Shown here one piece after another: positions 6,263 to 64,000 of a stretch of 64,000 nt of DNA. The position numbers and the translations under genes are program-made. The notes beneath the pieces are model-generated. The model saw only the letters and a list, made by a program, of their open reading frames with translations. It was not told the DNA's origin and did no database searches. Each line of letters starts with the position of its first letter. Within the stretch, counting starts at the first letter, position 1. Source of the DNA: Diprion similis (taxonomy: Eukaryota > Arthropoda > Insecta > Hymenoptera > Diprionidae); assembly GCF_021155765.1 (NCBI RefSeq), contig NC_060114.1, forward strand, positions 1,488,001-1,552,000, given 5' to 3'.

Positions 6263-6500
6263 TGTTACGTCCCGGAAACGTTACATTGCTTTCCCACAGT
6301 CTCACAGTTACCCTACACCCAGTCCTTATCCTCGCCTAGTCAGCATGCCCATCTCTCGCGACCAGCTAGCTCTCCATGCCCGTGTAACGTACTTCACTTC
6401 AATCCCAGTTCCCACTCAAGCAACACACAAGACTTTTCTCTTCGGTAAGTGACTCGCTAACGTCCATTCAAACCTTTATAATAAATCAACACTGTTATTC
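6263..6500 (+). repeat. gypsy-1 5' LTR, left part
   Basis: This matches the first part of the 3' LTR at 21324 onward, starting with TGTTACG and containing the shared AGCATGCCCATCTCTCGCG block. It is broken after TATTC at 6496-6500 by the copia-1 insertion. Confidence 0.9.
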
Positions 6501-6811
6501 TATTGAGTAAAAAGAGTTATCGGACTTTTCGAATAGTCGCGCGCCTGCGTGCGCACTCGATGCGACGCCATTATTGTTTCTATGCGTGGCCGAGAGAGGT
6601 GTTATACGAGAACGTGGCAGGAAGGCGAGTCAGTAGTCTAGCATCCGCTGACGAGTACAACACGTCCTCGTGATATATTAAAAAAAAAAAACTTTATCTT
6701 TTCGCTGTACATGCGTGATTTTGTCTATCGTTATTTTTGTCCGAAAACATCCTGCTCCCTTAAAACCTCGAGACATTCGACACTGCAATAAACGAGTCGT
6801 TTATCTCAAAA
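6501..6811 (+). repeat. copia-1 5' LTR
   Basis: 311 bases, matching 11062-11372 with one visible difference. It contains CAATAAA shortly before its end (around 6785), a plausible poly(A) signal. Confidence 0.92.
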
Positions 6812-6823
6812 GGTTATGGGCCC
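6812..6823 (+). other. copia-1 primer-binding site
   Basis: GGTTATGGGCCC directly after the 5' LTR. The same word follows the 5' LTRs of the other three copia elements here (28865, 43430, 55879). Known copia elements prime from an internal fragment of initiator-Met tRNA with this sequence. Confidence 0.85.
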
Positions 6824-6973
6824 AGGCAATCGTGCTGCGGGGTTTTAAGTGAGAGCGCGGATTTTTCGAGTGGCAACGAGACGCGTGGGTCGGGAGTGTC
6901 GACCGCGTGGCGGACATTTTGGAAGCGTGTGTAAGATACCTGTGGGAGTGAAATATTCTCGTGTGGGGGTACA

Positions 6974-9900
6974 ATGGCCGACGAACAGTTGGTGAGAGGA
7001 ATAGTGAAACTCGATGGGACAAATTATGTGACGTGGAAATATCATATAATGTCGGTTCTCGAGTCTGCGGACGTCGATGACGTAGTGGATGGGACGAGAC
7101 CGAAGCCAGCGGATACCGCGAGTGCGAATGAGAAGAAAACGTGGAAGAAAGATAATGCGAAAGCAAAAGTATTAATTGCATCGTCGGTGGAAGCGGGAGA
7201 GCTGCGTTCCCTGGTCACGTGTGTGACTGCTAAAGAACAATGGGACGCGCTGAGTCAGATGCACGAGCAAAAGACTGCGCAGAATCGTCTGTTTCTGAGA
7301 CAAAAGTATCACGAGTACCGCATGGCACCGGGAGATACGATTGTTCAGCACGTGGCAACGGTGAGGGGAATGGTTCAACAGATGAAAGATCTCGGTGGGA
7401 CTATCGATGATGTCGACGTGATGGCAAAAATCCTCATGGGTCTGACGTCGAGATTCGATACGTTTCAGACAGTGTGGGATAACGTTGCCGAGACAAATCA
7501 AACGTTAACGAGTCTAATAGATAGCCTGATTCGCGAGGAAGCACGACTTGGAACCGGTGGAGAAAGAACGGAGGCTCTTTTGGCTGTGAAAAATACAAGT
7601 GCGAAGAATAGTAGTACGAAAAACGCGAGTGCGAAAAATGCGGGTATGAAAAATAAATCGAAGTCGACGGGAAATTCGAGAAAACCGCGCGCGACAGAAG
7701 ACGTGATGTGTTTCAAATGTCGAGAGAAGGGGCATTACGCGCGGGATTGTCCAACAAAGAAAAATAATCGTGAGAGGCGGGACGGTAGTGGTTCGCGTGA
7801 TTGTGCGTTCATGGTGTCGGGCGGCGAGGAGCGAGGGGGGCGGGAAGCGCGAGAGAGTCGTGCGAGTCCCTCGGCAGAGCAGGTTAGACGCTTGCTCGGT
7901 GCCGGCAGCGCAGATTCGTGGTTAACCGACAGTGGCGCGTCGCGACATACTACATACCGACGCGAGTGGTACAGCGATTTTCGTCCGAGTGAGGGCGGCA
8001 CTGTTGTTCTTGGGAACGACGGTGTGTGCAAGGTCGCGAGTGAGGGGACAATTCGAATAGAAAAATTCGTCGATGGTCGGTGGTACAAGGGCGTAATCGA
8101 AAACGTGTTATATGTACCAGAGCTGAGGAAAAATCTTTTCTCGGTGGGAACGTGCACGGGAAAGGGGTGCGATGTTGAATTTAACTCGACGACGGTTTCG
8201 ATAAAGAAAGGGGGTGAGATCGTGGCTATCGGTGCGAGGCAAAGTAATGCCATATATCGAATGTTTTTTCGTGTCGAGCTACCGCGAGTGACGAGCGAAG
8301 TGAATATCACGTCGATAGATCTCAGGCTGTGGCATGAGCGACTCGGACACGTCGGTGGTCGAGCTTTGTGCAAAATGGTAAACAACGGTCTCGTCGACGG
8401 TGTTAAAATTAAAAATGCGTCGAAATTCTTTTGCGAAACGTGTCAGTTCGGGAAGGCACATCGACTACCGTTTCGAGTGTGTGACACCAAGAGAAATACA
8501 AAGCCTGGTGAGATGGTACACTCCGATGTATGCGGTCGAATGCAAGTCAATTCTCTCGGAGGTGCGTCGTACTATGTGACATTTATAGACGATGCGTCGG
8601 GGTTCTGCATAGTGTATTTTCTCAAACACAAGAACGAAGTTCTCGAGAAGTTTAAACTGTACGAGAGTATGGTGGCGAACAAATTCGGTACGAGGATAAA
8701 AATTGTGCGGTCGGATAATGGGGAAGAATACAAAAACGAGAAAATGGACGAATATTTAGAACAGCGCGGTATCGTGTTAGAGAACACAGCACCGCATACA
8801 CCGCAACAAAACGGCAAGGCGGAGAGAGCGAATCGAACGATTGTCGAGTGTGCGAGGACCATGCTCAGGGCGAAGGGACTTCCGTTGAACTTGTGGGCGG
8901 AGGCAGTGGGAACTGCAGTCTACGTGTTGAATCGAACGGTACATTCCAGTCGTACAGGGGTGAAGACGCCGTACGAAGTATGGACTGGACGAAAACCGGA
9001 TTTGAGACACGTGCGAGTCTTCGGCTCGGTGGCGTACAAACACGTGCCGAAACAATTCCGAAGAAAATTTGACGACAAGTCGAAGAAAGTGGTCTTGGTG
9101 GGATACCAAGGAGAATCGTCGAACTATCACGATCCCGATACAAGGCGAGTATCAGTGTCGAGAGACGTTGTCTTCGATGAATCAGTGGGAACCGGAGATT
9201 GGCGACCGAGAGAACACGTGTTGGTGATACCTGGTGACAAGTTACAGGAAGAACGACATGAAGACGGTACTGATGAAGAGCCGAGAGTCGAGGAACGGGG
9301 AAAAGACGACGAAATCAGAGAGCAACGAGAAGTTATTCTGCAGCGAGTAAGAGACGAACCAGTGCAACAACAGGAACCTGAGCTCGGTCGGAGAGAGCTG
9401 AGAGTACGTGCGAACATCAGAAGACCGTTGAGATTTGCCGGAGGGGCGGATGAGGGCGCGTTTGAAATTGATTTCGTCGAGTATCATGCTCCTGAGACTT
9501 TTCGCGAAGCGGTAGGGGGTCAAGACGGCCCGAAGTGGGTTGCAGCTATCGAAGAAGAACTGCTGGCTCATGAGAAGAACAATACTTGGTCATTGGTGAA
9601 GAGAGACGAGAACATGAAGCTGATAGACTCCAAGTGGGTATTTAAAGTCGTACGAGGGAAGAAAGAAAATGCGCAGCGTTTTAAAGCACGTCTCTGTGCG
9701 CGTGGGTTCCTACAACAACGTGGGATAGATTACAATGAGACGTTTTCTCCTGTCATGCGATATGACTCGCTTCGGATGTTCTTGGCTCGAGTTACGCTGG
9801 ATGATCTCGAGTTGATACAGTTTGACGTCTGTACGGCGTTCTTATACGGTGAGCTCGAGGAAGAAATCTTCATGAAGATTCCTGAGGGGCTGGACGTAGG

Positions 9901-11071
9901 AGAAGAAGACTGTGACAGTGTGGTGTGTCGACTGAACAAGTCTCTATATGGGCTGAAACAAGCTCCCAGATGCTGGAATCGCAAATTCAGCGTTTTTATA
10001 AGAAAATTCGATCTTGAACAATCGACGAGTGATCAGTGCATATATACTGGGTGTGTCGAAGGTATGAGCGTGTATCTAGCGTTATTCGTCGACGATGGGC
10101 TTGTTGCCTCGAAATCGTCTCGCGTGCTTGAATCTATGATAACTTTCTTGAAGGGTGCGTTCGAAATAACCCTAGGAGATGCAAGTAGATTCGTCGGTTT
10201 GCAAATTATACGCGACAGAAAAGAAAAGTCGATGTTTATACATCAGAGTGAATACGTAGAGAAAATACTAGAGAAATTTGGAATGGGGGGTGCGAAAGCA
10301 GTGAGTGTACCTGCGGACCCTCACGCGGCGTTAAAAGCAGTAGAGTCAGACGACGAAGCTATAGAAAATGTACCGTACCGTGAAGCGGTGGGTTCACTTA
10401 TGTTTTTGGCGGTAGTGTCGCGTCCTGATGTTGCATACGCGGTAAATTCGGTGTCAAAATTCTTGAACAAGCATAGTCTCATACATTGGAGAGCGGTGAA
10501 GCGTATCTTCGCGTATTTGGTCGGCGCAAGAGATCTCGGTATTGTTTACAGTAGCAAGGGCAAAGAAACTGAGCTCATGGGTTTTTGCGATGCAGATTAC
10601 GCGGGCGATCTTGACACTCGTCGGTCAACGACGGGCTACGTGTTCAGCTTTGCGAACGGGCTAGCGGCGTGGGCGAGTCAGCGGCAGAAGCTAGTCACGC
10701 TGAGTACCACAGAGTCGGAGTATGTGGCGGCTACAGCAGCGGCGGGCGAAGCGATCTGGCTAAGAAATTTGTCGCTTGATCTGGGTTCGACGTATGATAA
10801 AGCTGTTGAACTGTTCATAGATAATCAAAGTGCAATTCGGTTGGCGAAAAATCCGGAATTTCATAAGCGCACGAAGCACATTGAAGTGAGATTTCATTTC
10901 ATTCGAGAAAAGGTAGCGAGTAAGGAAATTCTAGTAAAATACGTGCCCACGGAGAGTCAAAGGGCGGATATATTTACCAAAGCCGTGCCGAGAGATCGGT
11001 TTGTGAAACTTCGCAGTATTTTAGGGTTAATGTCATTCGAAGAGTTCTCAAACAGTGAGTGTATTGAGTAA
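6974..11071 (+). CDS. copia-1 gag-pol polyprotein, intact
   Basis: One uninterrupted frame of 1,365 residues starting at the first ATG after the leader. In order: a gag domain opening with VKLDGTNYVTWKYHI (residues 10-24); a CCHC zinc knuckle CFKCREKGHYARDC at 246-259; a retropepsin DSG with Asp319; the integrase zinc site beginning at His454 (WHERLGH) and ending CETCQFGKAH; the integrase triad Asp518, Asp581, Glu617 (the last pair 35 residues apart as in retroviral integrases); RT with CARGF, SLYGLKQAPR and the FVDD active site at Asp1040-1041; and RNase H with CDAD at about 1206 and STTESEY. Every catalytic residue looked for is present. The last codons and the stop lie in the 3' LTR. It is probably competent for retrotransposition, judging only from the intact frame and young LTRs. 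Confidence 0.95.
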   Translation: MADEQLVRGIVKLDGTNYVTWKYHIMSVLESADVDDVVDGTRPKPADTASANEKKTWKKDNAKAKVLIASSVEAGELRSLVTCVTAKEQWDALSQMHEQKTAQNRLFLRQKYHEYRMAPGDTIVQHVATVRGMVQQMKDLGGTIDDVDVMAKILMGLTSRFDTFQTVWDNVAETNQTLTSLIDSLIREEARLGTGGERTEALLAVKNTSAKNSSTKNASAKNAGMKNKSKSTGNSRKPRATEDVMCFKCREKGHYARDCPTKKNNRERRDGSGSRDCAFMVSGGEERGGREARESRASPSAEQVRRLLGAGSADSWLTDSGASRHTTYRREWYSDFRPSEGGTVVLGNDGVCKVASEGTIRIEKFVDGRWYKGVIENVLYVPELRKNLFSVGTCTGKGCDVEFNSTTVSIKKGGEIVAIGARQSNAIYRMFFRVELPRVTSEVNITSIDLRLWHERLGHVGGRALCKMVNNGLVDGVKIKNASKFFCETCQFGKAHRLPFRVCDTKRNTKPGEMVHSDVCGRMQVNSLGGASYYVTFIDDASGFCIVYFLKHKNEVLEKFKLYESMVANKFGTRIKIVRSDNGEEYKNEKMDEYLEQRGIVLENTAPHTPQQNGKAERANRTIVECARTMLRAKGLPLNLWAEAVGTAVYVLNRTVHSSRTGVKTPYEVWTGRKPDLRHVRVFGSVAYKHVPKQFRRKFDDKSKKVVLVGYQGESSNYHDPDTRRVSVSRDVVFDESVGTGDWRPREHVLVIPGDKLQEERHEDGTDEEPRVEERGKDDEIREQREVILQRVRDEPVQQQEPELGRRELRVRANIRRPLRFAGGADEGAFEIDFVEYHAPETFREAVGGQDGPKWVAAIEEELLAHEKNNTWSLVKRDENMKLIDSKWVFKVVRGKKENAQRFKARLCARGFLQQRGIDYNETFSPVMRYDSLRMFLARVTLDDLELIQFDVCTAFLYGELEEEIFMKIPEGLDVGEEDCDSVVCRLNKSLYGLKQAPRCWNRKFSVFIRKFDLEQSTSDQCIYTGCVEGMSVYLALFVDDGLVASKSSRVLESMITFLKGAFEITLGDASRFVGLQIIRDRKEKSMFIHQSEYVEKILEKFGMGGAKAVSVPADPHAALKAVESDDEAIENVPYREAVGSLMFLAVVSRPDVAYAVNSVSKFLNKHSLIHWRAVKRIFAYLVGARDLGIVYSSKGKETELMGFCDADYAGDLDTRRSTTGYVFSFANGLAAWASQRQKLVTLSTTESEYVAATAAAGEAIWLRNLSLDLGSTYDKAVELFIDNQSAIRLAKNPEFHKRTKHIEVRFHFIREKVASKEILVKYVPTESQRADIFTKAVPRDRFVKLRSILGLMSFEEFSNSECIE

Positions 11072-11372
11072 AAAGAGTTATCGGACTTTTCGAATAGTCG
11101 CGCGCCTGCGTGCGCACTCGATGCGACGCCATTATTGTTTCTATGCGTGGCCGAGAGAGGTGTTATACGAGAACGTGGCAGGAAGGCGAGTCAGTAGTCT
11201 AGCATCCGCTGACGAGTACAACACGTCCTCGTGATATATTAAAAAAAAAAAACTTTATCTTTTCGCTGTACATGCGTGATTTTGTCTATCGTTATTTTTG
11301 TCCGAAAACATTCTGCTCCCTTAAAACCTCGAGACATTCGACACTGCAATAAACGAGTCGTTTATCTCAAAA
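11062..11372 (+). repeat. copia-1 3' LTR
   Basis: 311 bases paired with 6501-6811. The gag-pol frame runs 10 bases into it and uses a TAA inside the LTR as its stop. The sequence just upstream (CAGTGAGTG) is only weakly purine-rich, so the polypurine tract is short or unusual. Confidence 0.92.
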
Positions 11373-11377
11373 TATTC

Positions 11378-11536
11378 TACCCGTGTCTCAATTCTCTTCC
11401 TGCACTGGGGAAAGGGACGCACGCAAGTGTATAATCGACGTATACGAACCCATAAATAGCCAAATAACATCTTGGCTGGGCGTAGAGTAGGTTCCGGTTA
11501 CCGCTCATCGTAACCTACGCAACCTACCCCGTAACA
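11378..11536 (+). repeat. gypsy-1 5' LTR, right part
   Basis: This resumes the LTR sequence interrupted by copia-1 and ends CCCCGTAACA, as does the 3' LTR. The following TTCTGGTGGCAGCGG is the likely primer-binding site and is identical after the LTR of the second gypsy copy at 63076. Confidence 0.88.
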
Positions 11537-11985
11537 TTCTGGTGGCAGCGGTTTTGCCGTCGACCTACCCTTCGTGCAGTGCTTCGGAAAATCTACGCAA
11601 GAAAAGTGTTAATACGCAAAACTCCCGATACCATATCAATAAGTGATAGCCACGTCGAGAGTGTTCGCCGGCAGATCAAGTGTGTACCTGACTAATTCAG
11701 AACTCGCAACGAACTGTACAACGAGTGGAAATACACGGACGACAGCCGAGTTATACCACACATCATCTTTCGGAACACAAAATTGTGATTAGCCCCCACC
11801 CCTTTCTGGACACCTGCGACGCTGGAACAAGAATCTGGACCCAAGATTGGCATCACTCAGATACCTGGAACACCAAACCGAGACTCTTCAACACGCAGCG
11901 GACTTCCCCACCCACACCCTCCTCGTGCTGACGGACGACGTGCATCACCTCTTCAAGTCTCACCTGCCTTCAGTCGCCTACAACC

Positions 11986-12020
11986 ATGCCGTACCTTGTG
12001 TTTGTGTTCATCTTTGCTCT
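11986..12020 (+). CDS. env: mini-exon: start codon and hydrophobic leader for spliced env
   Basis: Eleven codons plus two bases beginning with a well-placed ATG (CAACCATG) and encoding a strongly hydrophobic stretch, directly followed by a consensus donor (GTAAGT at 12021). If unspliced, the frame ends at a TAA inside that donor after 12 codons. If spliced to the acceptor at 18618-18619, the phase is correct to continue into the env frame. The same exon and donor, with two substitutions visible in the peptide, are conserved in the second copy at 63655-63689. Known errantiviruses make env from a spliced mRNA. The role as signal-peptide exon is inference. Confidence 0.7.
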
Positions 12021-13213
12021 GTAAGTTCGTTGTAATCCTTAGTAATAAGTTGATATTTCATCTCTGTACCCATTGCGCATCTACGAAAATCGATACGGCA
12101 CCAACTAATGAGACCGGTTCATCTTTTTGGTCGGTAAAAGACGTCTTACCGACGATCCCTGCGTTCGATGGCAACAACATGCCTTTTGACCAATTTATGG
12201 AACAATTGCGCCACGTGAAAACCCTCATTAGAGCTTCAGACAAATTGACTCTTGCTAAATTTGCACAATCAATAATTACCGGTCCCGCTTCCCGATATTT
12301 AGTAGGCATTAATTGCAACGACGTCGAAGACCTTATAACAGCCCTCAGCCGAGCATACCGTCCGGATATCCCCGTACGTCAATTATCAACTCAATCAGAT
12401 AGAATTACCCAACAACCGCGTGAGCGCATCATCGATTACTCATGCAGAATAAGAGTAATATTAAACGAAATAAGCAAAGCTATCGAAAAAAAATACCCGC
12501 CAGACATAGCAACCGCCTTGCTAAATGACTTAAGAAAAGACACTGCTAGAACGTTCATTAGAGAGCTTGGACCAGAACTAGAGTGGAGAATAGCTACCAT
12601 CAGACCACTCCCTACCTTTGATATCGCCATCAGCATCGCCGAAAGTGAGGAGACCGAGTTAAATAACCGTCAAATGCAACCCTTTGCACAATATTGTACC
12701 CCTCCTACACACATGTATCCCCCAATTTCCCTCTCTGCCTGCCAAAACGATGCCCCTCCACCTCAGGTGTCCATAACCCCCTCCCTCATTCCCCCTCTAA
12801 TGTCATTGCCCACACCTGGTTACGCGCATCAGCAAGCGCCCCGTATCGAAACCATGTCCTACGCCCAAGCGCTCGGTGCAAGCACCCTCGCGCCTCCCGC
12901 AGATCGAACGAGGACCTCGCCGACTAGTTGCCAATTCTGCAACCAGCGAGGTCACCTGATCACGGAATGCCATCGCCTGCAAAATACAAGATACTGTACC
13001 AAATGTCGCAGAATGGGCCACTTTTACAATGAGTGCAACCAACCCAGCAGAAGCGACAAACTGTACTGCGATAACTGTAAGCGCAGAGGCCACACATCAG
13101 ACCAATGTAGATTTCCCCCGCGTGATAACCAAAACCATGTAAGTTCGAATCAAGATTTAAACGGCAACACTGCCCGCGGGGAGAACGCGCCCGCGAGCTA
13201 TGCAAACAACTAG
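11996..13213 (+). CDS. gag: gypsy-1 gag-like protein with three zinc knuckles
   Basis: Open frame of 405 codons. In the second gypsy copy the frame begins with ATG at 63764 (MAPTNETG); here the matching codon at 12095-12097 is ACG, so either translation starts at an upstream in-frame ATG (11996, overlapping the env mini-exon in another frame) or the start has been lost. A capsid-like helical region (PAFDGNNMPFDQFMEQL to about residue 220) is followed by a proline-rich linker and three CCHC knuckles in a row: CQFCNQRGHLITEC, CTKCRRMGHFYNEC and CDNCKRRGHTSDQC. These package genomic RNA in retroelements. Stop TAG at 13211-13213. Confidence 0.85.
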   Translation: MCLCSSLLCKFVVILSNKLIFHLCTHCASTKIDTAPTNETGSSFWSVKDVLPTIPAFDGNNMPFDQFMEQLRHVKTLIRASDKLTLAKFAQSIITGPASRYLVGINCNDVEDLITALSRAYRPDIPVRQLSTQSDRITQQPRERIIDYSCRIRVILNEISKAIEKKYPPDIATALLNDLRKDTARTFIRELGPELEWRIATIRPLPTFDIAISIAESEETELNNRQMQPFAQYCTPPTHMYPPISLSACQNDAPPPQVSITPSLIPPLMSLPTPGYAHQQAPRIETMSYAQALGASTLAPPADRTRTSPTSCQFCNQRGHLITECHRLQNTRYCTKCRRMGHFYNECNQPSRSDKLYCDNCKRRGHTSDQCRFPPRDNQNHVSSNQDLNGNTARGENAPASYANN

Positions 13214-13272: not shown

Positions 13273-14127
13273 ATCGATGCCCCTGAATTGACAAAGATTT
13301 CTAAATTTATTATTGACACCGGTGCAGACGTAAACTCAATCAAAGAAAATTGCGTTAAGCCCTTCGTACGACGCACCACAGACGAACGTTTGACATTGAC
13401 TGGTATAACGGACGAAAAGATGGAAACCATCGCAAAAACGGAAATATGCTTTAATAACAACTCCCATACCTTTCACTTGGTCCCTGACTCATTCCCAGTC
13501 CCACATGACGGTATTTTAGGCCAACCCTTTTGACGAAAAGAGAAAGCAACTATCTTGTTCAACTCAAACTCGGTAATGCTTGGATCCTCATTGCCAATCC
13601 ACTTCAACAAAGTCGAACAACCTCCTCCTGAAACCGCTCGTGTTATTACAATAAAGGTCCGCACCGCGAAAGTCATCCCGATAATAGTTGCAAACCCAGA
13701 TAACAAAGTAGGCTACCTTAAACGCATTAATTTAGGCAACAATGTTCTTTGTGGTGAAGCAATAGTTCGAAATCAGAACGGCATCGCTTATTCCTACGTG
13801 TTCAATTGCAACGAATCTGTCGTAGAGATAGCATCTCCAACGGTAACCCTGGAAGAATTCGACAAACCACTGAGCACAGCCATGCCCGAAATTACGTCTA
13901 CCCCGCCGAATAAATCCGACAAAAATAATGAACAAAAATCCCCCCTTCCTACCCAAACCACTTGTCATAATAATTCATTAATTCTTTCTACCAATAACCA
14001 CATATCCCGTCCGCCCCATTACCCCATCTCCTACCCCCGTCAGCTCACTGACCCGCACATCAGCAACCTGAGTCCCGCATACCTGATAACAGTGCACCTC
14101 GTCGTGGCGCCGCAACAGTCCTCTTGA
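13273..14127 (+). pseudogene. pol: gypsy-1 protease and pol N-terminal part, broken
   Basis: Open after a TAA at 13270, in a different frame from gag, as expected if pol is normally reached by frameshifting. The aspartic protease signature FIIDTGADVNSI lies near the start (13303-13338) and GILGQPF near its end. An in-frame TGA at 13531-13533 follows directly, after which the same frame continues to 14127 with a region containing ARVITIKVRTAKVIPI and GNNVLCGEA, then a low-complexity Pro/Ser/Asn tail. The RT continues in another frame from about 14124, so at least one stop and one frame change separate protease from RT in this copy. Confidence 0.8.
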
Positions 14128-15737
14128 CTGACAGTAGGTCAGAGAGATTGGACGCCCTAAAGAATAGTGTGTACCTCGATCATCTAAATGACACCGAAAA
14201 ACAATTAATACTCGACCTGCTAACAGAATTTAACTATCTTTTCTATCTCCCGGGAAATAAATTAGGCCACACCAATCTAACCCATCACACTATCCCCAGG
14301 ACGGAAGACACACCAATTCACACCAAACAATACCGTTTTCCAAAAATCCACAAAGATGAAATCGAATCCCAGGTCAATAAACTCCTTTGGCAAGACCTTA
14401 TTAAACATTCCGCATCTCCTTATAATTCTCCGGTTTGGATCGTCCCCAGAAAATCCGATATTGACGGTAATAAACGATGGCGCATGGTGATCGACTACCG
14501 AAAGCTCAACGAAAAAACAATCGGCGACGCCTACCCAATGCCCGACATCACCGAAATTCTTGATCAACTTGGCTCAGCTAAATATTTCTCTACATTCGAC
14601 CTTGCTTCCGGCTTTTATCAAATTCCCATGCACCCTGATCATAGTGCAAAAACTGCATTTTCGACGCCCCGGGGCCACTATGAATTCTCCCGAATGCCCT
14701 TCGGATTAAAAAACGCCCCTGCCACGTTCCAAAGGCTTATGGATCAAGTCCTACTAGGCCTACATGGCAACAAAATGTTCGTATATTTAGATGATATAGT
14801 AATTTACGCCCGAAACCTAAAAGAACATGAGATTAAATTCCGAAAGTTAATGAAGAGACTAACTGACGCTGGTTTGACTCTGCAGCCAGACAAATGCCAA
14901 TTTCTGCGCAAAGAAGTCGTTTACCTCGATCACTTGATAACCGAGTCGGGAGTGAAACCTGACCCTAGTAAATTAGTAGCTGTAAAAGAATACCCGGTCC
15001 CCAAAAACCCCAAAAATGTTAGACAGTTCCTTAGTCTGCTAGGCTACTACCGCAGGTTTGTCCCAAATTTCGGAAAAATTGCGAAATGCCTTAATAATTT
15101 AACAAAAAAAGATACCCCTTTCATTTGGACATCCGAGCACCAATCTGCCTTCGAAACTTTACGTGATTGTTTATGCACAGAACCAATCCTTCAATACCCT
15201 GACTTCAGCAAGCCGTTCACGCTCACTACCGACGCGTCAAATTTCGCCATTGGTGCAGATCTGAGTCAAGATAAGGATGGCACCGACCTACCGGTAGCTT
15301 ACGCATCCCGAGCACTCAAATCCGCTGAATTAAATTACTCAGTGCCCGATAAAGAATTTTTGGCCGTGTACTGGAGTATTAACCATTTCCGTCCGTCTAT
15401 CTATGGCCAGAAATTTACTTTAGTGACAGACCATGAGCCGCTCAAATGGATAAAAAGCGTCAAGAAACCGAATTCCCGTTTACTACGTTGGAGTCTGGAA
15501 CTGGCAGAATATGATTTCGATACAAAACATAAATCCGGCAAATCTAATACCAACGCCGACGGTCTGTTCACAAACACGCCCCCTGATACCGCCCAAATCC
15601 TCCCTAAAGACGCAAAACGCGCCCGTCCCACGACTGAATCCTCTAGCGACAAATCAAAAAAACGCATTGAAACACTCATCAGTTCCCCCGACGCCCCCGA
15701 CAGACCACAGACGAACCTACAAACCCAGCCCCACTGA
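14124..15737 (+). pseudogene. pol: gypsy-1 reverse transcriptase and RNase H
   Basis: 537 open codons. Motifs in order: VWIVPRKSD and WRMVIDYRKLNEKT (fingers), FSTFDLASGFYQIPM with the first catalytic Asp, the KTAFSTPRGHYEFSRMPFGL block, the YLDD active site at residues 221-224, then the Ty3/gypsy-type RNase H with TTDASNFAIGA, YSVPDKEFLAVYW and DHEPLKW. The end of RNase H reads NADGLF where most relatives have an NADALSR-like motif. A Pro/Ser-rich tail follows and the frame stops at 15735. The domain itself looks undamaged, but it is cut off from protease and integrase by frame changes in this copy. Confidence 0.92.
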
Positions 15738-16009: not shown

Positions 16010-17509
16010 AAAACAATTGACATTGAACCAGCCACCGACCTACCGGACTCTTCGCATACCCATACCCCCTCCTACAGCGATTTCCTCCTAGAAAGCGAAA
16101 CTTTTCCCACTACGCGTAATAAACGTATTAAAGAAATAAAAGCTGACCTATTACAACAAGAAGATAACCTGGCTCATTGTATATCAGTTGACTGTCAAAT
16201 CTCGAAAGGAATCGCGTCGCAGCTAGCAGAACGTAAATTCATAAACCGCGAACAACTCAGAGAATACGACCCGTCTGTGACCGACGTTATTCCTACCGCT
16301 CACGGAAACCGGCAAATTTATAACCTAGTTACAAAGCAAAAGTACAGTGACAAACGCTTGCCAGGCGTCTTTTTTGATACCTTGATCAACTTTAGGAAAA
16401 CCTTGGAAGAAGATGGTGTAACATCTGTCTCAATCCCGTTAATAGGCTGCGGACTCGACAAACTAGAATGGAGCACGGTGCGCAAAATGATCCACTATAT
16501 TTTCAAAGATATAAAAATGAATATCACCGTTTGTCACCTTGACCCTCCGCTTTCAACCCCCACACACCACGACGACACAACGGTGTCCGTTGATAACGCC
16601 TCACCTGACCCCATCCCTCCCACATCTGGTAACCCCGCTCCTTCTCTTCGTTCGCCGCGTAAGAAACCGCAACTTCCGACCAAATCAGTCGCACCTCTTG
16701 CCACCCCACCACCCCTCCCAGCCACGAACATCACCATCCCCCCGCCTGTAGGACCCCCGCGCCGTGCTAAGAGACGCCCACCAGCTGTTCCCAGGCCAGC
16801 GAACTCTACGACTCACCCCCCTCCACCTCCTCCCTCAGAACCCAGACTGGCCTCTGATAACGACAACAGCTCCAACTTGCTCACGGATACCGAATACCAT
16901 ACATGCGCCCAACAATCCGACTCCGATATGGAAACCACACACTCTGACCATGACATTGATCCCAATGTTAACAATGATTTGACCGATACCTCCCACGATT
17001 TCACGAACTTTGTTGACAACTTGGACGACATACCGGTATCTGACAATGTCAAAGATACCAATGCTGGTCTTTTGATGCTCAAAACCAATTATGCACACTT
17101 TATATCAACAGACTGCTCTTGGACTAAAGGCATACCATCACAACTTGCCCACGATAATATCGTTGACCCAGATATAGTTATGAGGCACCCTCCACAGAAA
17201 TTTGATATTATCGAATCCAAGCACAACAACCGACGGATTTTTACTCTAGTACTAAAATTAAAAGAATCAGATAACAGCAACCTATATGATATTTTTCAAC
17301 TCTTGTCTAAACTGAAAACAGTCTTGACCGATTTAATTCCGAAATCCCTTGCTTTCCCAATAACGGACGATAGTTTAGGTGGACTCGACCCTCGTGTTAT
17401 CCGAAAACTCTTATCTTACCTCTTCGCAGACTTACAAATTCAAATCACGCTTTGCCGCAACACGACTGTCACCCCAGACGAATGTTCATGTAAAGAAATA
17501 ATTGAATAA
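16010..17509 (+). CDS. tandem macro-domain region of gypsy-1 pol
   Basis: Open for 499 codons between the TAA stops at 16007 and 17507. Macro domain 1 (about 16124-16543) shows the order typical of TARG1/Poa1p-type macro domains: NLAHCISVDCQISKGIASQL (16166 on), YNLVTKQKY, IPLIGCGLDKLEW and NITVCHL at the end. Lys at 16352 and Asp at 16457 align with the catalytic Lys84 and Asp125 of human TARG1 (OARD1). A linker of about 170 residues, proline-rich then acidic, follows. Macro domain 2 (about 17063-17463) repeats the pattern (HFISTDCSWTKGIPSQLA, later GGLDPRVIRKLLSYLF and IQITLC) but the Lys is replaced and the GCGLD loop is altered, so it may only bind or be inert. Macro domains bind ADP-ribose and some remove it from proteins; the role here is unknown. 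The integrase follows directly in the same frame. Confidence 0.82.
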   Translation, partial: KTIDIEPATDLPDSSHTHTPSYSDFLLESETFPTTRNKRIKEIKADLLQQEDNLAHCISVDCQISKGIASQLAERKFINREQLREYDPSVTDVIPTAHGNRQIYNLVTKQKYSDKRLPGVFFDTLINFRKTLEEDGVTSVSIPLIGCGLDKLEWSTVRKMIHYIFKDIKMNITVCHLDPPLSTPTHHDDTTVSVDNASPDPIPPTSGNPAPSLRSPRKKPQLPTKSVAPLATPPPLPATNITIPPPVGPPRRAKRRPPAVPRPANSTTHPPPPPPSEPRLASDNDNSSNLLTDTEYHTCAQQSDSDMETTHSDHDIDPNVNNDLTDTSHDFTNFVDNLDDIPVSDNVKDTNAGLLMLKTNYAHFISTDCSWTKGIPSQLAHDNIVDPDIVMRHPPQKFDIIESKHNNRRIFTLVLKLKESDNSNLYDIFQLLSKLKTVLTDLIPKSLAFPITDDSLGGLDPRVIRKLLSYLFADLQIQITLCRNTTVTPDECSCKEIIE

Positions 17510-18532
17510 TGCCACGAATTATTAATTGGCAGTCATCAAGGCGTCACAAAAATATACAACCGCATTAGACAAAAATATTTTCGGCCGCACATGAAAGAAC
17601 AAATCCAAGACTTCATAAGAACTTGTGAGAGTTGCCAAAGGAAAAAACTAGTAAGAGTAAAAACCAGGTTGCCGATGGTGATAACAGATACTCCTGCCGA
17701 TGCATTCGACAAAGTAGCACTAGACATCGTTGTACCTCTCTCCCTTACTAAATCAAACAACAAATATCTTTTGACGATACAATGCAACTTGACGAAATTT
17801 CTGGACACCATCCCTTTACCTGACGCCACTGCCAAAACAATAGGTGCAGCATTCGCGAAAGAATACATTACACGTTACGGTGCCCCTCGAGCAATACTTA
17901 CAGACCAAGGACAGAATTTCATGAACACAGTCATTAAGCAACTTTGTTAACTTTTTAAAATAAAACAAATTCGAACTACAGCTTACCACCCACAGTCTAA
18001 CGGATCGCTAGAACGCAGTCACCTTGTTCTCACCGAACACGTCAAGCATTACAGGAATGCTGGTAAAGACTGGGATGAATACATCCGCTTTGCTATTTTC
18101 TGTTATAACACCGCGAAGCACGAAGGCACTAACTTCACTCCCCATCAGCCAATTTTTGGGTTCCATGCCAGACTTCCGACAGACGCGAACCCTGCCAGCG
18201 CTGACACCCGTTCCTACGATTCCTTCCTTCTAGATTTAATCTCTAACCTATCCAGCATACGAAAAAACGCCGCGGCTAACCTTATTTGAGCAAAGCACCG
18301 TTCCAAGACGTATTACAACCGTCGTACCAATAACCAAAATTTCGAAGCAGGTCAAAAGGTCTATCTACTAAACGAAACCCGATCTAAATTTGACGACCAC
18401 TATAAAGGAGCATATACGATCGAGCGTATAATTGACGATATCAATGCCGAAATTTTCATCACCCTCCATAAGACCAAAATTGTCCATCTGAATAAACTCA
18501 AATTAGCACAGGAAGAGAGTGATTCAAATTAA
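17510..18532 (+). pseudogene. pol: gypsy-1 integrase, broken by two stops
   Basis: This follows the macro region in the same frame after one TAA (17507). The HHCC zinc site starts at once (CHELLIGSHQG ... CESCQRKK), then the catalytic core with Asp in ALDIVVP, Asp in LTDQGQNF and Glu in SNGSLER. A TAA at 17948-17950 lies just before the segment leading to that Glu, and a TGA at 18287-18289 lies in the C-terminal domain. The frame ends with TAA at 18530. In an undamaged copy the macro domains would be joined directly to the integrase N-terminus. The three stops make this copy unlikely to integrate by itself. Confidence 0.85.
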
Positions 18533-18619
18533 ACCCACTTTAGAAGCCAACAGCCGTATATTATCAATCTACCCGTAACTGCATCATATTACGCCTCATG
18601 CCCTCGCATATCGTTGCAG

Positions 18620-20669
18620 GTGCAATGCCCTAAACAGCGAGACAGACGAGTTATCCAATGTCATGATTAAACAACTGGAACAAAACCCGGGAATCTTCTT
18701 CGAACAACTGCAAGACCTGCGTACATATAACAAAGAATGGACCCTGCTAAACTACGTGGACCTCCACAACCTATTCGACCGACTTGACCAAGCATCAGAT
18801 TTCTTGAATAAAAAAGGGGAAAAGAGCCATTGCCAGACCGGTAACCACATCCCAATGTTGGCTAACAGAATAAGAACCATGAAAACATATCAAAAACGAA
18901 TCGAATATCTAGTCGGCCATCGCACAGGCAAATTGACTCACTCTGAACTTGCAAAGCTAGCCCACCATCGCAAAACACGAGGCGCGATTAACTTCATTGA
19001 CAGCATATCAAAATCTCTATTCGGTACCCTAGACGTAGAAGACGGAGAAAATTACAATCAACAAATCGACAACCTTTACAATGACAGCAGACACTTAGCA
19101 TCTCTCCTTAATAAACAAACTAATATCGTCCAGTCAACACTAGGCGCCTACAAAAAAGAACTCGACAGCATTATAAGCCACGACCACGAACAAGATACGT
19201 TACTTACGATTCTCTCGAATGATGCAGCTATCTCAAAAGCCTTAATTGCTGACAACACCTTTAGAACAACCCTACTCAACCGACTAATGGACTTGGACCG
19301 ACACTTGAACGAATACGAACTTGACCTGTACAGCCTATCAGACGCCATTCTTTCCGCACAAAAAGGTATTGTCTACCCCAAAATTCTATCACCGAACCAA
19401 ACTATTTCTAGCCTCAAGCATATCCAGTCACTTAGACCGCAAATAGAATTCCCTATCCCATTGGACCCAAGCTACGCCGAAAAATTAATTCGCATCTCAC
19501 AAATCGACATAGCGTATTCCAAGCCCAGCCTCCTTTACGTAATATCCATCCCACTGCTCAACCCCGACGCCTTTAACCTATACAGATTGCTCCCCGTCCC
19601 TGTAAGACAGACGTACGACTCAACAAATAACAAATTCGCCTACATCCAACCTGGCAGTGATTACGTAGCTATAGCACTTAACCGAGCGTCATACTTCCAA
19701 ATTTCAGAATCTAGATTCACTGGATGCGTTTTGTCTTTGGGTAAATTCATATGCAAACTGACACAACCACTGTTTCATCACTCATCTCGTCGACTCTGTG
19801 AGGTTGGTCTTTTTCTAAACCCCTCTGAGAAAATTGCAAAAGAATGCGATATCAGACTGACCGCATTCGATGGTACCTACTGGACAGAATTCTCTACATC
19901 CAATTCTTGGATTTTCTCGTCTTCGACACCTGAAACTCTACATATTCTCTGCCCGAATGACCACACCTCCCGTGTCACGATCTCCGGCTCAGGCATTATC
20001 TCCCTGAATGACTTATGTACGGCTAGTACCTCTGAAGTAACCCTCAAAACCTCGAAACGTTCTCAATCTACCGAGATACATTCCTACGTTCCCAAGGTTA
20101 CCCTAGATTTAAGCCAAATATCCGTTAGTCTTGATTTTAATGTTTCCATTGACTTATCCCTCGTCGCCATCCATCCCTTGCGTGAACCTTCACACATTAA
20201 CTCCCATGACCTTGCCATCACTGGCGTTGCCATGATTGACGTGCTCAAACGCTCAGCCGATCTAAGCACACACTATCGTACTCGAAATAACATGCATCGT
20301 CTCACCACCAGCCTCAGCTATGGCGGAATCGCCTTCGCGTCCCTCTCAGCAGTTTTCTTTTGCTACAAATTCTCATTATTCAGTAAAATCTCAAAAGTAT
20401 ACTTTTGCTGTAAATCCAGGCGGACACGCCACAACCTCAACTCACGTCATCCAAGACCCCAAACCCTTTCCCACCATGCCATTTCCCACCCTCACCTAGA
20501 AAATAGGTCATTCCCTAACGACCTGGCTCTTCGCACTTCGTCGCTGCTCCGAGCTCATTCACAAATTGAACTGATGGAAATGTCCAAGCTACGACAACAC
20601 CCACGTAAACTGCCCCGCGATCAGAGCCTTGACGCTAGTTCCGACTCCCTCTTCATCTGGACAGACTAA
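18620..20669 (+). CDS. env: errantivirus-type envelope fusion protein, downstream exon
   Basis: The exon is taken from the acceptor AG at 18618-18619, which keeps phase with the mini-exon at 11986-12020; the first in-frame ATG is at 18663 and the stop at 20667-20669. There is no internal stop (668 codons from that ATG). Residues 103-106 (counting from 18663) form a furin-like RKTR followed by a GAINFIDSISKSLFGTLD stretch, the arrangement seen at the fusion peptide of baculovirus F-like proteins, which errantiviruses carry. Coiled-coil-like heptads follow. A single membrane anchor lies at about residues 553-573, with a cytoplasmic tail of about 95 residues rich in Arg and Ser. It is described only; the frame is open although pol of the same copy is broken. 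Confidence 0.85.
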
Positions 20670-21323
20670 GCCCTCTACTACAGACTTATAAGAACATACC
20701 CATTGTTATGCCCAAATATCGTTTAATAAAAATGTCTCGATTTACGCTATTATAATAACCGTATTCCGTATCACAATGAAAACCCTAAAATTATAATTTA
20801 ACTATAATCGTATCTATACTATCTACAATTATACCCTGACATTGTCATTTAACTTTGATTGTATCTATACTATCTACAATCAAAACCCTAAAATTACAAT
20901 TTAACTATAATCGTATCTATACTATCTACAATTATACCCTGACATTGTCATTTAACTTTGATTGTATCTATACTATCTACAATCATAACCCTAAAATTAT
21001 AATTTAATTATAATTGTATCCTTATAATCCTAAAATTCTAATTTTACTATGATTGTAATTTCCCTATCACGGTTATGTCACTACTACATACTTAAACTAT
21101 GAGAACATATCTATTGTTACATTCAAAATTTGAAAAAAAAACATTCCTGCTAAAAATGTATACTAACCCGCTTAAACGCGCATTTACCCTAGGCGCTATA
21201 CTCTTTCAGGCAAACTGTATTGTAATCTTTTGTAAGTGAGTCAGTACATTACCCAAAAACTTGGTTTTCCTTCGAACATTCGGCTCTGTACCCTCACCGA
21301 ATGTTCTTCCCGAAGGGGAGGCG
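20670..21323 (+). repeat. gypsy-1 3' untranslated region with 103-base tandem repeat
   Basis: A 103-base unit starting AACCCTAAAATTA begins at 20781, 20884 and 20987, about 2.5 copies, each made of two similar halves around TATCTATACTATCTACAAT. The region ends with the purine tract GAAGGGGAGGCG just before the 3' LTR, the likely polypurine primer for plus-strand synthesis. Confidence 0.85.
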
Positions 21324-21719
21324 TGTCACGTCCCGAAGAAGTTACATTGCTTTCCCACAGTCTCACATTACCCTACACCCAGTCCTTATCCTCGCCTAGT
21401 CAGCATGCCCATCTCTCGCGACCAGCTAGCTCTCCATGCCCGTGTAACGTACTTCACTTCAATCCCAGTTCCCACTCAAGCAACACACAAGACTTTTCTC
21501 TTCGGTAAGTGACTCGCTAACGTCCATTCAAACCTCTATAATAAATCAACACTGTTATTCTACCCGTGTCTCAATTCTCTTCCTGCACTGGGGAAAGGGA
21601 CGCACGCAAGTGCATAATCGACGTATACGAACCCCTAAGTAGAGAAATAACATCTGGGCTGGGCGTAGAGTAGGTTTCGGTTACCGCTCATCGTAACCTA
21701 CGCAACCTACCCCGTAACA
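21324..21719 (+). repeat. gypsy-1 3' LTR
   Basis: 396 bases, starting TGTCACGTCCCG and ending CCCCGTAACA, uninterrupted. It shows the undisturbed sequence (TGTTATTCTACCCG, about 21553-21566) at the place where copia-1 entered the 5' LTR. Confidence 0.92.
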
Positions 21720-62633: not shown

Positions 62634-63075
62634 TGTTACGTCCGACGTCCCGCCTCACGTTTCTCCCACCTTCCTCGACGCTTGTCTTTACCTACCATTC
62701 CCACACTCCATATCTTGTCATCCTATTTCCATCTTGGCTTACACCACTCGCTATCGCCCTTACCTTGCTATTTCGATCCCCCTCTACCCTGTATCCTCGC
62801 TCATTTTCTCATGCAAAAGACTCACGCTGATTCCAACGCTCTTACCTCTTGCATTCAACTTCAACTCCCGTTCCCCAAAACCATTGTCTCAACTACTCCT
62901 CATCGACTTCACTCAATTTCCGAATCAAAATAAAAGTTATAATCATTCTGTAATTACTGTTCTTTCCTTTCCGTTCCCTGAACGAAAACGGCGACGACTA
63001 CGAACCTACAAAAATATCACCCGAACCAACATCATCGGGTGGGTACATGGACTGCCGTCCCCCTGTACCGTAACA
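62634..63075 (+). repeat. gypsy-2 5' LTR
   Basis: 442 bases with the terminal inverted repeat TGTTACG/CGTAACA, C- and T-rich in its first half. No partner LTR in the window. Confidence 0.75.
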
Positions 63076-63654
63076 TTCTGGTGGCAGCGGTTTTGCCGTC
63101 GACCTACCCTTTGTTCAGTGCTTCGGAAAATCTACGCAAGAAAAGTATTAATACGCAAAACTTCCGATATCATATCAATAAGTGATAGCCACGTAGACAG
63201 TGTTCGCCGGCAAATCAAGTGCGTACCTGACAAATTCAGGACCCGCAACGAACTGTGCAACGAGTGAAAATATACGACGCAAGAAAAGTGTTAATACGCA
63301 AAACTCCCGATATCATATCAATAAGTGATAGCCACGTCAAGAGTGTTCGCCGGCTAATCAAGTGTGAACCTGACAAATTCAGAACCCGCAACGAACTAAA
63401 TATACGGACGAAAGCCGATCTATACCACACATCACCTTTTGGAACCCAAAATTGTGATTAGCCCCCACCCGTTTCTGGACGCCTGCGACGCTGGAACAAG
63501 AATTTGGACCCAAGATTGGCATCACTCAGATACCTGGAACACCAAACCGAGACTCTTCAACACGCAACGGACTTCCCCGCCTACACCCTCCTCTTGCCGA
63601 CGGACGACGTGCATCACATCTTCAAGTCTCACCTGCCTTCAGCCGCCTACAACC

Positions 63655-63689
63655 ATGCTGTACCTTGCGTTTGTATTCATCTTTGCTCT
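63655..63689 (+). CDS. env: gypsy-2 env mini-exon
   Basis: Same 35-base exon as 11986-12020, with ATG in the same context, hydrophobic codons and donor GTAAGT at 63690. The changes between copies keep the frame, length, hydrophobicity and splice site. Confidence 0.65.
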
Positions 63690-63763
63690 GTAAGTTTGTT
63701 GTAATCCTTAGTAATAAGTTGATATTTCATCCCCGTACCCATTGCCCATCTCCGAAAATCGAT

Positions 63764-64000
63764 ATGGCACCAACTAATGAGACCGGTCCATCTTTTTGGT
63801 CAGTAAAAGACGTCTTACCGACGATCCCTGCATTCGATGGCAACAACATGCCTTTTGACCAATTTGTGGAACAATTGCGCCACGTGGAAACCCTCATTAG
63901 AGCTTCAGACAAAATGACCCTTGCTAAATTTGCACAATCAAAAATTACCGGCCCCGCTTCCCAATATTTAGTAGGCATTAATTGCAACGACGTCGAAGAC
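63764..64000 (+). CDS. gag: gypsy-2 gag, N-terminal 79 codons
   Basis: Begins MAPTNETGPSFW and is open to the window edge. It is almost identical to gypsy-1 gag over this length (PAFDGNNMPFDQF, TLAKFAQS, LVGINCNDVED). It shows that the natural gag start is here and that gypsy-1 has ACG at the matching place. Incomplete because of the window edge. Confidence 0.85.
   Translation, partial: MAPTNETGPSFWSVKDVLPTIPAFDGNNMPFDQFVEQLRHVETLIRASDKMTLAKFAQSKITGPASQYLVGINCNDVED

What the first reader, a model, noticed from the sequence alone, without database searches (positions are those of the whole stretch)
16010..17509. Tandem macro domains built into a gypsy/errantivirus-like pol, between RNase H and integrase
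The frame encodes HCISVDCQISKGIASQLA ... NLVTKQKY ... IPLIGCGLDKLEW and, 300 residues on, HFISTDCSWTKGIPSQLA ... GGLDPRVIRKLLSYLF: a macro domain and a diverged second copy. In copy 1 the Lys at 16352 and Asp at 16457 fall where TARG1-type ADP-ribosyl-glutamate hydrolases have their catalytic pair; copy 2 has lost the Lys. Several plus-strand RNA viruses use macro domains to reverse host ADP-ribosylation, and some lentiviruses carry dUTPase at this same position of pol. A retroelement that removes or reads ADP-ribose, perhaps against PARP-based DNA-damage or antiviral responses at integration, would be a notable system. I do not know whether it has been described.
Basis: partly seen in the sequence, partly recalled or inferred. 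Interest (0 to 1): 0.92.

Follow-up and report, generated by a model that had tools for sequence, protein, structure and literature searches.

The report
TARG1-like macro domains inside retrovirus-like pol
Virus-like jumping genes in what is probably an insect genome carry, inside their polymerase gene, an enzyme-like domain related to the cell's own remover of ADP-ribose tags plus a worn second copy, which suggests that they may have to undo this host chemical mark in order to multiply.

Summary
The central observation holds. A gypsy/errantivirus-like element (LTR 6263 to LTR 21719, Baculo_F-type env) carries two macro domains in pol between RNase H and integrase. Domain 1 matches human TARG1/OARD1 by sequence (E 3.6e-19) and predicted structure. 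It keeps the TARG1 Lys84/Asp125 pair, but the Lys codon is 16334, not 16352. The window copy is broken, but of the 20 longest genome matches 18 have no stop in the region. Seven related families in this 269-Mb genome carry such domains, six with a catalytic domain 1. Between diverged copies dN/dS is 0.06-0.36 for domain 1 and 0.10-0.57 for domain 2; against its nearest copy the window shows no constraint. Domain 1 of three families groups with this genome's own TARG1 genes, suggesting repeated capture (not proven). Two further lineages place the domain elsewhere in pol. Best reading: a pol-encoded ADP-ribosyl hydrolase acting at reverse transcription or integration; activity is inferred. My searches showed no paper describing it.

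The parts
6263..6502 (+). 5' LTR of the gypsy-like element, first part (TGT...; interrupted by a nested copia-like element)
   Evidence: 97.5% match to 21324-21562; sequence at both edges read
6503..11372 (+). nested copia-like LTR element (LTRs about 6501-6811 and 11062-11372, 99.7%; RVT_2 ORF 6974-11071), not part of the system
11373..11536 (+). 5' LTR, second part (...AACA)
   Evidence: 95.7% match to 21556-21719
11789..13213 (+). gag-like open frame with CCHC zinc knuckle
   Evidence: zf-CCHC E 0.0019, just below its cut-off
13273..13533 (+). aspartic protease piece
   Evidence: RVP E 2e-4, above its cut-off
14052..15737 (+). reverse transcriptase and RNase H
   Evidence: RVT_1 6.2e-37, RT_RNaseH 1.9e-37
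16106..16546 (+). macro domain 1 (M1), TARG1-like, catalytic pair kept
16334..16336 (+). Lys codon aligned with TARG1 Lys84
16457..16459 (+). Asp codon aligned with TARG1 Asp125
16547..16990 (+). proline-rich linker, less conserved than the domains
17000..17470 (+). macro domain 2 (M2), degenerate, directly before integrase
17255..17257 (+). Lys codon of M2 aligned with TARG1 Lys84 (retained; the Asp125 column reads Gly)
17510..18532 (+). integrase (zinc-binding and core parts; later part by similarity), broken by stops at 17948 and 18287
   Evidence: the later part matches P0002 at 78%; Pfam finds nothing significant beyond 17950
18579..20669 (+). env, Baculovirus-F-type, open frame
   Evidence: Baculo_F 3.4e-50
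21324..21719 (+). 3' LTR (396 bp)
63068..64000 (+). start of a second copy of the same family (leader and gag, about 92.5%); its macro region is probably the match just beyond the window edge (locus L016)

Best explanation
The element's pol polyprotein carries a captured TARG1-type macro domain (M1) that most likely works as an ADP-ribosyl hydrolase: the Lys attacks the distal ribose and the Asp resolves the intermediate, as proposed for TARG1. Because it sits between RNase H and integrase, it should be packaged with the replication enzymes and act at reverse transcription or integration, removing ADP-ribose from the element's own RNA or cDNA ends, from its pol proteins, or from chromatin at the DNA breaks made by integrase. 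The integrase-adjacent domain (M2) is an older macro fold kept by selection after losing the catalytic loop; it most likely serves as a binding or structural module of the integrase. Shown here: domain identity, position, catalytic pair, predicted fold, purifying selection between diverged copies, presence in seven families. Inferred: enzyme activity, packaging, substrate, benefit to the element.
For: TARG1 match E 3.6e-19. AlphaFold2 model of M1 pLDDT 86.4, pTM 0.83; its eight best PDB matches are all human TARG1, TM 0.82-0.91, then DarG. M2 model pLDDT 86.8, pTM 0.83; best PDB match TARG1, E 8.7e-9. Lys84/Asp125 columns kept in 14 of 14 M1 rows: 13 chosen from six families of this genome, plus P0002. 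LVTK in 20 of 20 and GCGLD in 19 of 20 of the longest copies of the window's family. In the two other lineages Lys in 42 of 44 and Asp in 44 of 44 rows. dN/dS M1 / M2 where both were compared between diverged copies: family 3 0.06 / 0.17; family 2 0.16 / 0.10; family 5 0.19 / 0.22; window versus L028 0.27 / 0.19; window versus L025 0.24 / 0.16; M1 only, family 6 0.35; M2 only, family 7 0.16. M1 is 76% identical to the Neodiprion lecontei copy, like RNase H (80%) and the integrase C-terminus (78%), while linker pieces are 39-71%. A macro hit lies within 3 kb of 85 of the 110 closest integrase hits, but of 1 of the 40 most distant of the 150 scored. TARG1 chemistry and its action on nucleic-acid ends: PMC7050489 and PMC6582358 (passages).
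Against: No activity was measured. The window copy itself is broken. Against its nearest copy (L003) its M1 shows no constraint (dN 0.033, dS 0.011) and M2 0.96, as expected of a decaying insertion. Against eight other copies of its family M1 (0.29-0.36) and M2 (0.38-0.57, on dS under 0.1) are far less constrained than RT (0.04-0.09) and RNase H (0.04-0.06), though more than or like the linker (0.42-0.67). Family 8 elements (L054, L059), in open frames of up to 1896 codons, show only a degenerate macro next to integrase and no detected catalytic M1, so M1 is not needed by every relative. Some decayed copies have altered motifs (L024, L030). The 13 M1 rows are chosen representatives, and hits in public data were recruited by shared words that include the catalytic motifs, which inflates those counts.
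Confidence: 0.62

Rival explanations
1. Reader, not eraser: M1 and M2 bind poly- or mono-ADP-ribose on chromatin and tether integrase to PARP-marked sites, as chromodomains do in chromoviruses. Catalysis is incidental.
For: Macro domains flank or abut integrase in the mapped families, and in lineage B (which includes named beetle proteins) the macro domain sits C-terminal to integrase followed by a CCCH finger. M2 is maintained without an intact catalytic loop.
Against: A pure reader does not need the Lys/Asp pair, yet it is kept in 14 of 14 M1 rows. In the lineage of P0004 the macro domain lies before RT, far from integrase.
Confidence: 0.22
2. Structural spacer or scaffold: the macro folds were captured by chance and are kept only as folded linkers that hold RNase H and integrase apart or help polyprotein processing.
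For: M2 has lost catalytic features in several different ways. Family 8 shows only M2. The linker is also under some constraint between diverged copies (dN/dS 0.26-0.31).
Against: M1 keeps the TARG1 pair in all six families in which it was found, and the domain occurs in at least three different positions of pol in different lineages. A spacer would not need either.
Confidence: 0.1
3. Ordinary insertion of a host TARG1 gene copy in one old element, with no function in the element.
For: The host has such genes, and the window copy is decaying.
Against: 20 near-full-length matches of this family, 18 without a stop in the region, six other families, and purifying selection between diverged copies.
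Confidence: 0.02
4. M2 is itself an enzyme with DarG-like chemistry (only the Lys kept), acting on ADP-ribosylated DNA, while M1 acts on protein or RNA.
For: In DarG only the lysine of the pair is conserved (PMC7050489, passage). M2 keeps that Lys in 9 of 12 rows, and DarG is the next fold match after TARG1 for both domains.
Against: M2 of families 5 and 8 and of one family 1 copy has lost the Lys. The GCGLD motif is gone in 12 of 12 rows.
Confidence: 0.06

Closest known systems
TARG1 / OARD1 / C6orf130 (ALC1-like macrodomain hydrolase of animals)
   Same: Fold, sequence class, Lys84/Asp125 pair, GCGLD loop in M1
   Different: TARG1 is a free cellular enzyme; here it is a domain of a retroelement polyprotein, paired with a degenerate second copy
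DarG antitoxin macrodomain
   Same: Next fold match after TARG1 for both domains; NCBIfam DarG model E 3.2e-13 but 49.7 bits against a cut-off of 250; like M2 keeps only the Lys of the pair (PMC7050489, passage)
   Different: Bacterial toxin-antitoxin context; no DarT domain was listed in the Pfam scans of this element's frames
Macro-domain ORFs in epsilon-like endogenous retroviruses of ray-finned fish (Basta et al. 2009, as cited in PMC4977317; passage only; original not held)
   Same: A retroelement that gained a macro domain
   Different: There described as additional open reading frames; class of macrodomain not given in the passage; here inside pol, tandem, TARG1 type, in Ty3/gypsy
Orchid Ty3/gypsy elements with an AlkB m6A demethylase domain (PMC9289625; abstract and section 12 read)
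   Same: A Ty3/gypsy element that captured a host eraser enzyme
   Different: RNA demethylase in an extra ORF in plants, with activity shown in vitro
Viral macrodomains of plus-strand RNA viruses (alphavirus nsP3 and others)
   Same: Macro fold; proposed use against host ADP-ribosylation (recalled)
   Different: MacroD-type rather than TARG1-type (recalled; PMC6582358 calls those of VEEV and SARS 'MACROD-like'); weaker fold match here (TM about 0.75 by query length)

Membership tests
TARG1-type (ALC1-like class) macrodomain hydrolase - M1 | Sequence and fold closest to TARG1 among solved structures | tested here: met
TARG1-type (ALC1-like class) macrodomain hydrolase - M1 | Lys84/Asp125 catalytic pair | tested here: met
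   14 of 14 chosen M1 rows; LVTK 20 of 20 and GCGLD 19 of 20 longest copies of the window's family
TARG1-type (ALC1-like class) macrodomain hydrolase - M1 | Hydrolysis of ADP-ribosyl esters | not testable with these tools
   needs an enzyme assay
TARG1-type macrodomain hydrolase - M2 | Catalytic Lys and Asp with the GCGLD loop | tested here: not met
   Lys 9 of 12, Asp 5 of 12, both 4 of 12, GCGLD 0 of 12 rows
TARG1-type macrodomain hydrolase - M2 | Macro fold closest to TARG1 | tested here: met
   the alignment used for the model contained TARG1 relatives, and single-sequence PDB search found no macro domain
Ty3/gypsy LTR retroelement | LTRs, gag-like CCHC, PR-RT-RH-IN order | tested here: met
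Errantivirus (insect endogenous retrovirus) | F-type env downstream of pol | tested here: met
   Baculo_F 3.4e-50; the trait as described in PMC12992720 (passages)
Errantivirus (insect endogenous retrovirus) | Placement with errantiviruses in an RT tree | not tested
   no reference errantivirus sequences were fetched; hence 'errantivirus-like'

The most novel reading that the evidence does not exclude
A running arms race over ADP-ribosylation in an insect germline: errantivirus-like elements have captured the host TARG1 gene more than once, through spliced RNA, and renew the catalytic copy while the older copy next to integrase loses catalysis and becomes an integrase module. Other gypsy lineages took the same domain at other places in pol. 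This would make host ADP-ribosylation of retroelement RNA, cDNA or integration complexes a general and unrecognised barrier to LTR elements in animals.
Probability: 0.4. Interest if true: 0.93.

Novelty: new variant of a known kind. Interest (0 to 1): 0.82.

Why it matters
If M1 is active, it is a retroelement-encoded eraser of ADP-ribose built into the replication polyprotein. It would point to ADP-ribosylation (of RNA ends, cDNA ends, integrase or target chromatin) as a restriction on reverse-transcribing elements in insects. The system offers natural experiments: families with and without a detected catalytic domain in one genome, and host TARG1 genes beside them.

Tried and rejected
Rejected: an ordinary spacer (profile, fold and selection say otherwise); a chance resemblance of copy 2; a lone curiosity of one broken copy; copy 2 as a dead sequence (copy 1 versus copy 2 dN 0.69, dS 3.43, saturated; 1 of 300 neutral simulations stayed open, superseded). 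A first dN/dS try was misregistered by one residue and is discarded. Led nowhere: close relatives in IMG/VR with P0001 (none, with an alignment, gave one stand-alone gene on a viral contig); a single capture event for all M1 could not be rejected (AU p 0.14; for lineages A, B and C together p 0.22); a clear target-site duplication was not seen at the LTR edges by eye. Basta et al. 2009 is known only through PMC4977317; a DOI that I guessed was not held. Literature searches. Searches found no paper; some searches listed only the top 20, 15, 15 and 10 of 34, 280, 545 and 476 papers. No listing or passage that I saw describes a TARG1-type macro domain in Ty3/gypsy pol; subscription papers and bioRxiv are not held.

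Full report
What is there. The window holds a retroelement with LTRs at 6263-6502 plus 11373-11536 (split by a nested copia-like element) and 21324-21719; the two parts match the 3' LTR at 97.5% and 95.7%. Inside are a gag-like frame with a CCHC knuckle, a protease piece, RT and RNase H, the finding's 499-residue frame, integrase pieces and an open Baculo_F-type env. This is a Ty3/gypsy element of errantivirus-like build; I did not place it in an RT tree, so I do not call it a member of Errantivirus. The pol of this copy is broken by a frame change and several stops. The nearest public protein found is a Neodiprion lecontei gene model of unknown name, P0002 (72% over 34% of the query), with RT and RNase H and one macro domain. 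The window's genome has 269 Mb in 60 contigs; its species is not given, and 'insect' is my inference from P0002 and the env type.

The two domains. Copy 1 (M1) matches human TARG1 over about 140 residues. Its AlphaFold2 model (pLDDT 86.4, pTM 0.83) has eight TARG1 chains as its best PDB matches, followed by DarG. Copy 2 (M2) is a diverged duplicate or an older relative: 33% identity with copy 1, 31.6 bits against a TARG1 profile without element sequences versus at most 6.0 in 2000 shuffles, and a model (pLDDT 86.8) whose best PDB match is TARG1. The alignment behind that model holds TARG1 relatives, and single-sequence PDB search with copy 2 found no macro domain. In the window M2 keeps the Lys (codon 17255) but has DDSLG where TARG1 has GCGLD. 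Relative to the public pol P0006, the stretch between RNase H and integrase is about 530 residues longer.

A family, not one relic. In the window's own genome P0001 has 98 matches (86 of 205 candidates scored, so a lower bound). The 20 longest (L002-L021, window included) begin by residue 15 and reach residue 498; 18 of these have no stop in the region, and open frames run up to about 1800 codons. In these 20 the Lys motif LVTK is found in 20 and GCGLD in 19. A TARG1-like query gave 128 matches (150 of 226 candidates scored). Mapping RT, RNase H and integrase beside chosen matches shows seven families by my own informal grouping, numbered 1, 2, 3, 5, 6, 7 and 8; L043, first called family 4 in my notes, is counted with family 3, and family 1 is the window's. 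Families 1, 2, 3, 5 and 6 have the order RT, RNase H, M1, M2, integrase. M2 of families 2 and 6 is faint: best E 2.6e-6 and 0.036, the latter not significant alone. Family 7 (L046, L050) has both macro domains after integrase, the degenerate one first. Family 8 (L054, L059) shows only a degenerate macro domain before integrase. L055 has a still fainter trace there (E 0.0021). Three more distant gypsy families used as controls (L056-L058) have a gap of about 100 residues and no macro hit. Of the 150 integrase hits listed (150 of 541 candidates scored), 85 of the first 110 (down to about 42% identity, some partial) have a macro hit or 100 within 3 kb, on either strand, against 1 of the last 40; that one is a 60%-identical fragment of the close clade. 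Of the 25 without, I looked at two: L054 does have M2 by profile, L055 only the faint trace.

Selection. Between diverged copies in this genome dN/dS is: family 3 M1 0.06, M2 0.17, linker 0.26, RT 0.01, RNase H 0.04; family 2 M1 0.16, M2 0.10; family 5 M1 0.19, M2 (part) 0.22; family 6 M1 0.35; family 7 M2 0.16. Window versus L028: M1 0.27, M2 0.19, linker 0.29; window versus L025: M1 0.24, M2 0.16, linker 0.31. Window versus eight closer copies (L004, L005, L013, L014, L016, L019, L020, L021): M1 0.29-0.36, M2 0.38-0.57 on dS under 0.1, linker 0.42-0.67, RT 0.04-0.09, RNase H 0.04-0.06; there M1 and M2 are much less constrained than RT and RNase H. Against its closest copy, L003, the window shows no constraint (M1 3.07 on dS 0.011, M2 0.96), which fits a decaying insertion. 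These are Nei-Gojobori estimates from pairs; a few have small or saturated dS. Window versus L004 dS also jumps along pol (RT 0.37, RNase H 0.66, pre-macro 1.77, M1 0.24, M2 0.04), which suggests a recombinant origin.

Catalytic residues. In one search M1 keeps both residues in 14 of 14 rows, 13 chosen from six families of this genome and P0002; GCGLD is intact in 12 of 14, the two family 7 copies being damaged there. Among decayed copies not put into that count, L024 and L030 have altered motifs. M2 keeps the Lys in 9 of 12 rows, the Asp in 5 of 12, both in 4 of 12 (families 2 and 3), and the GCGLD motif in none. So M1 looks like an enzyme site under selection and M2 does not, although M2 is kept as a fold. 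DarG also keeps only the lysine of the pair (PMC7050489, passage; that paper writes Glu125 where the aligned human sequence has Asp), so M2 need not be inert.

Origin. The genome has two tandem TARG1-like genes whose frames are best joined across GT-AG introns of 176 and 526 bases at the same place (no transcript was seen); the element copies have no intron there. In the tree, M1 of families 2, 6 and 7 joins these host genes (98/93), while M1 of families 1, 3 and 5 lies elsewhere. In one search, M2 of family 2 joins M2 of families 1 and 3 (89/86), with a warning of long branches. The simplest reading is an old macro domain next to integrase shared by the clade and a later fresh capture from the host gene in families 2, 6 and 7. 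A single clade of all M1 is not rejected (AU p 0.14). In public data, two further lineages carry the domain at other places. Lineage B has it after integrase with a CCCH finger, in long pol proteins P0006 and P0008 of unnamed source and in Molorchus minor proteins such as P0012; proteins of Pyrocoelia pectoralis and Brassicogethes aeneus join it in the tree. Lineage C has it before RT in P0004, with P0025 and others from unnamed sources as kin. The sets A (window and P0002), B and C are each one clade; B and C are, and A is joined by copy 2. One origin for all three is not rejected (AU p 0.22). Lys is kept in 42 of 44 and Asp in 44 of 44 rows of B and C, with the caveat that the search words include these motifs.

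How it most likely works. TARG1 removes ADP-ribose from Glu/Asp and from phosphorylated nucleic-acid ends, through a Lys-bound intermediate (PMC7050489 and PMC6582358, passages; a K84A protein fails to rescue TARG1 loss, PMC10933786, passages). A pol-borne copy would travel with RT and integrase in the particle. It could clear ADP-ribose from the element's RNA or cDNA ends, from pol, or from chromatin at integration breaks. Packaging, substrate and benefit are inference.

What is known. Extra domains in LTR elements are known: chromodomains (PMC12440569, passage) and an AlkB demethylase in orchid gypsy elements (PMC9289625, abstract and section 12). Macro-domain ORFs in fish epsilon-like retroviruses are mentioned in PMC4977317 (passage). 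In the listings of my ten searches (named under Tried and rejected, several of them capped) I saw no paper describing a TARG1-type domain, a tandem of active-looking and degenerate macro domains, or re-capture of TARG1 in Ty3/gypsy pol. I therefore call it a new variant of a known kind (a retroelement with a captured host enzyme), with high interest. In checking this report against the calls I corrected the number of families with M1 (six, not seven) and the dN/dS ranges; my odds did not change.

Noticed in passing
6503-11372: A copia-like LTR element with a 1365-aa open frame is inserted inside the 5' LTR of the gypsy-like element; its LTRs are 99.7% alike.
   Followed up: partly
20773-21029: A 103-nt tandem repeat lies between env and the 3' LTR.
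   Followed up: no
window versus L004 (family 1): dS changes sharply along pol (0.37 RT, 0.66 RNase H, 1.77 before M1, 0.24 M1, 0.04 M2), suggesting a recombinant subfamily.
   Followed up: partly
L023 4857-5102, L047 6067-6462, L051 1187-1579, L053 4743-4985: Family 5 elements have a third, very diverged macro-like stretch upstream of RT (E about 1e-10 to 1e-12); by eye it lacks the catalytic residues.
   Followed up: partly
L054, L059: Family 8 has about 670 residues between RNase H and its lone degenerate macro domain that I did not identify.
   Followed up: no
L048: The host genome has two tandem TARG1-like genes with a likely intron at the same site.
   Followed up: partly
L001 5998-6432: A stand-alone 144-aa TARG1-like protein with the Lys/Asp motifs is encoded on a 203-kb IMG/VR viral contig.
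   Followed up: partly
P0005: A 701-aa protein couples a GDSL-like esterase domain (E 3.1e-5, below its cut-off) to a TARG1-like macro domain; its nature is unknown.
   Followed up: no
P0009-P0023 except P0020: Fourteen Molorchus minor proteins with a TARG1-like domain; several carry a UniRef label beginning 'Cleavage and polyadenylation specifi', perhaps because of their CCCH finger.
   Followed up: no
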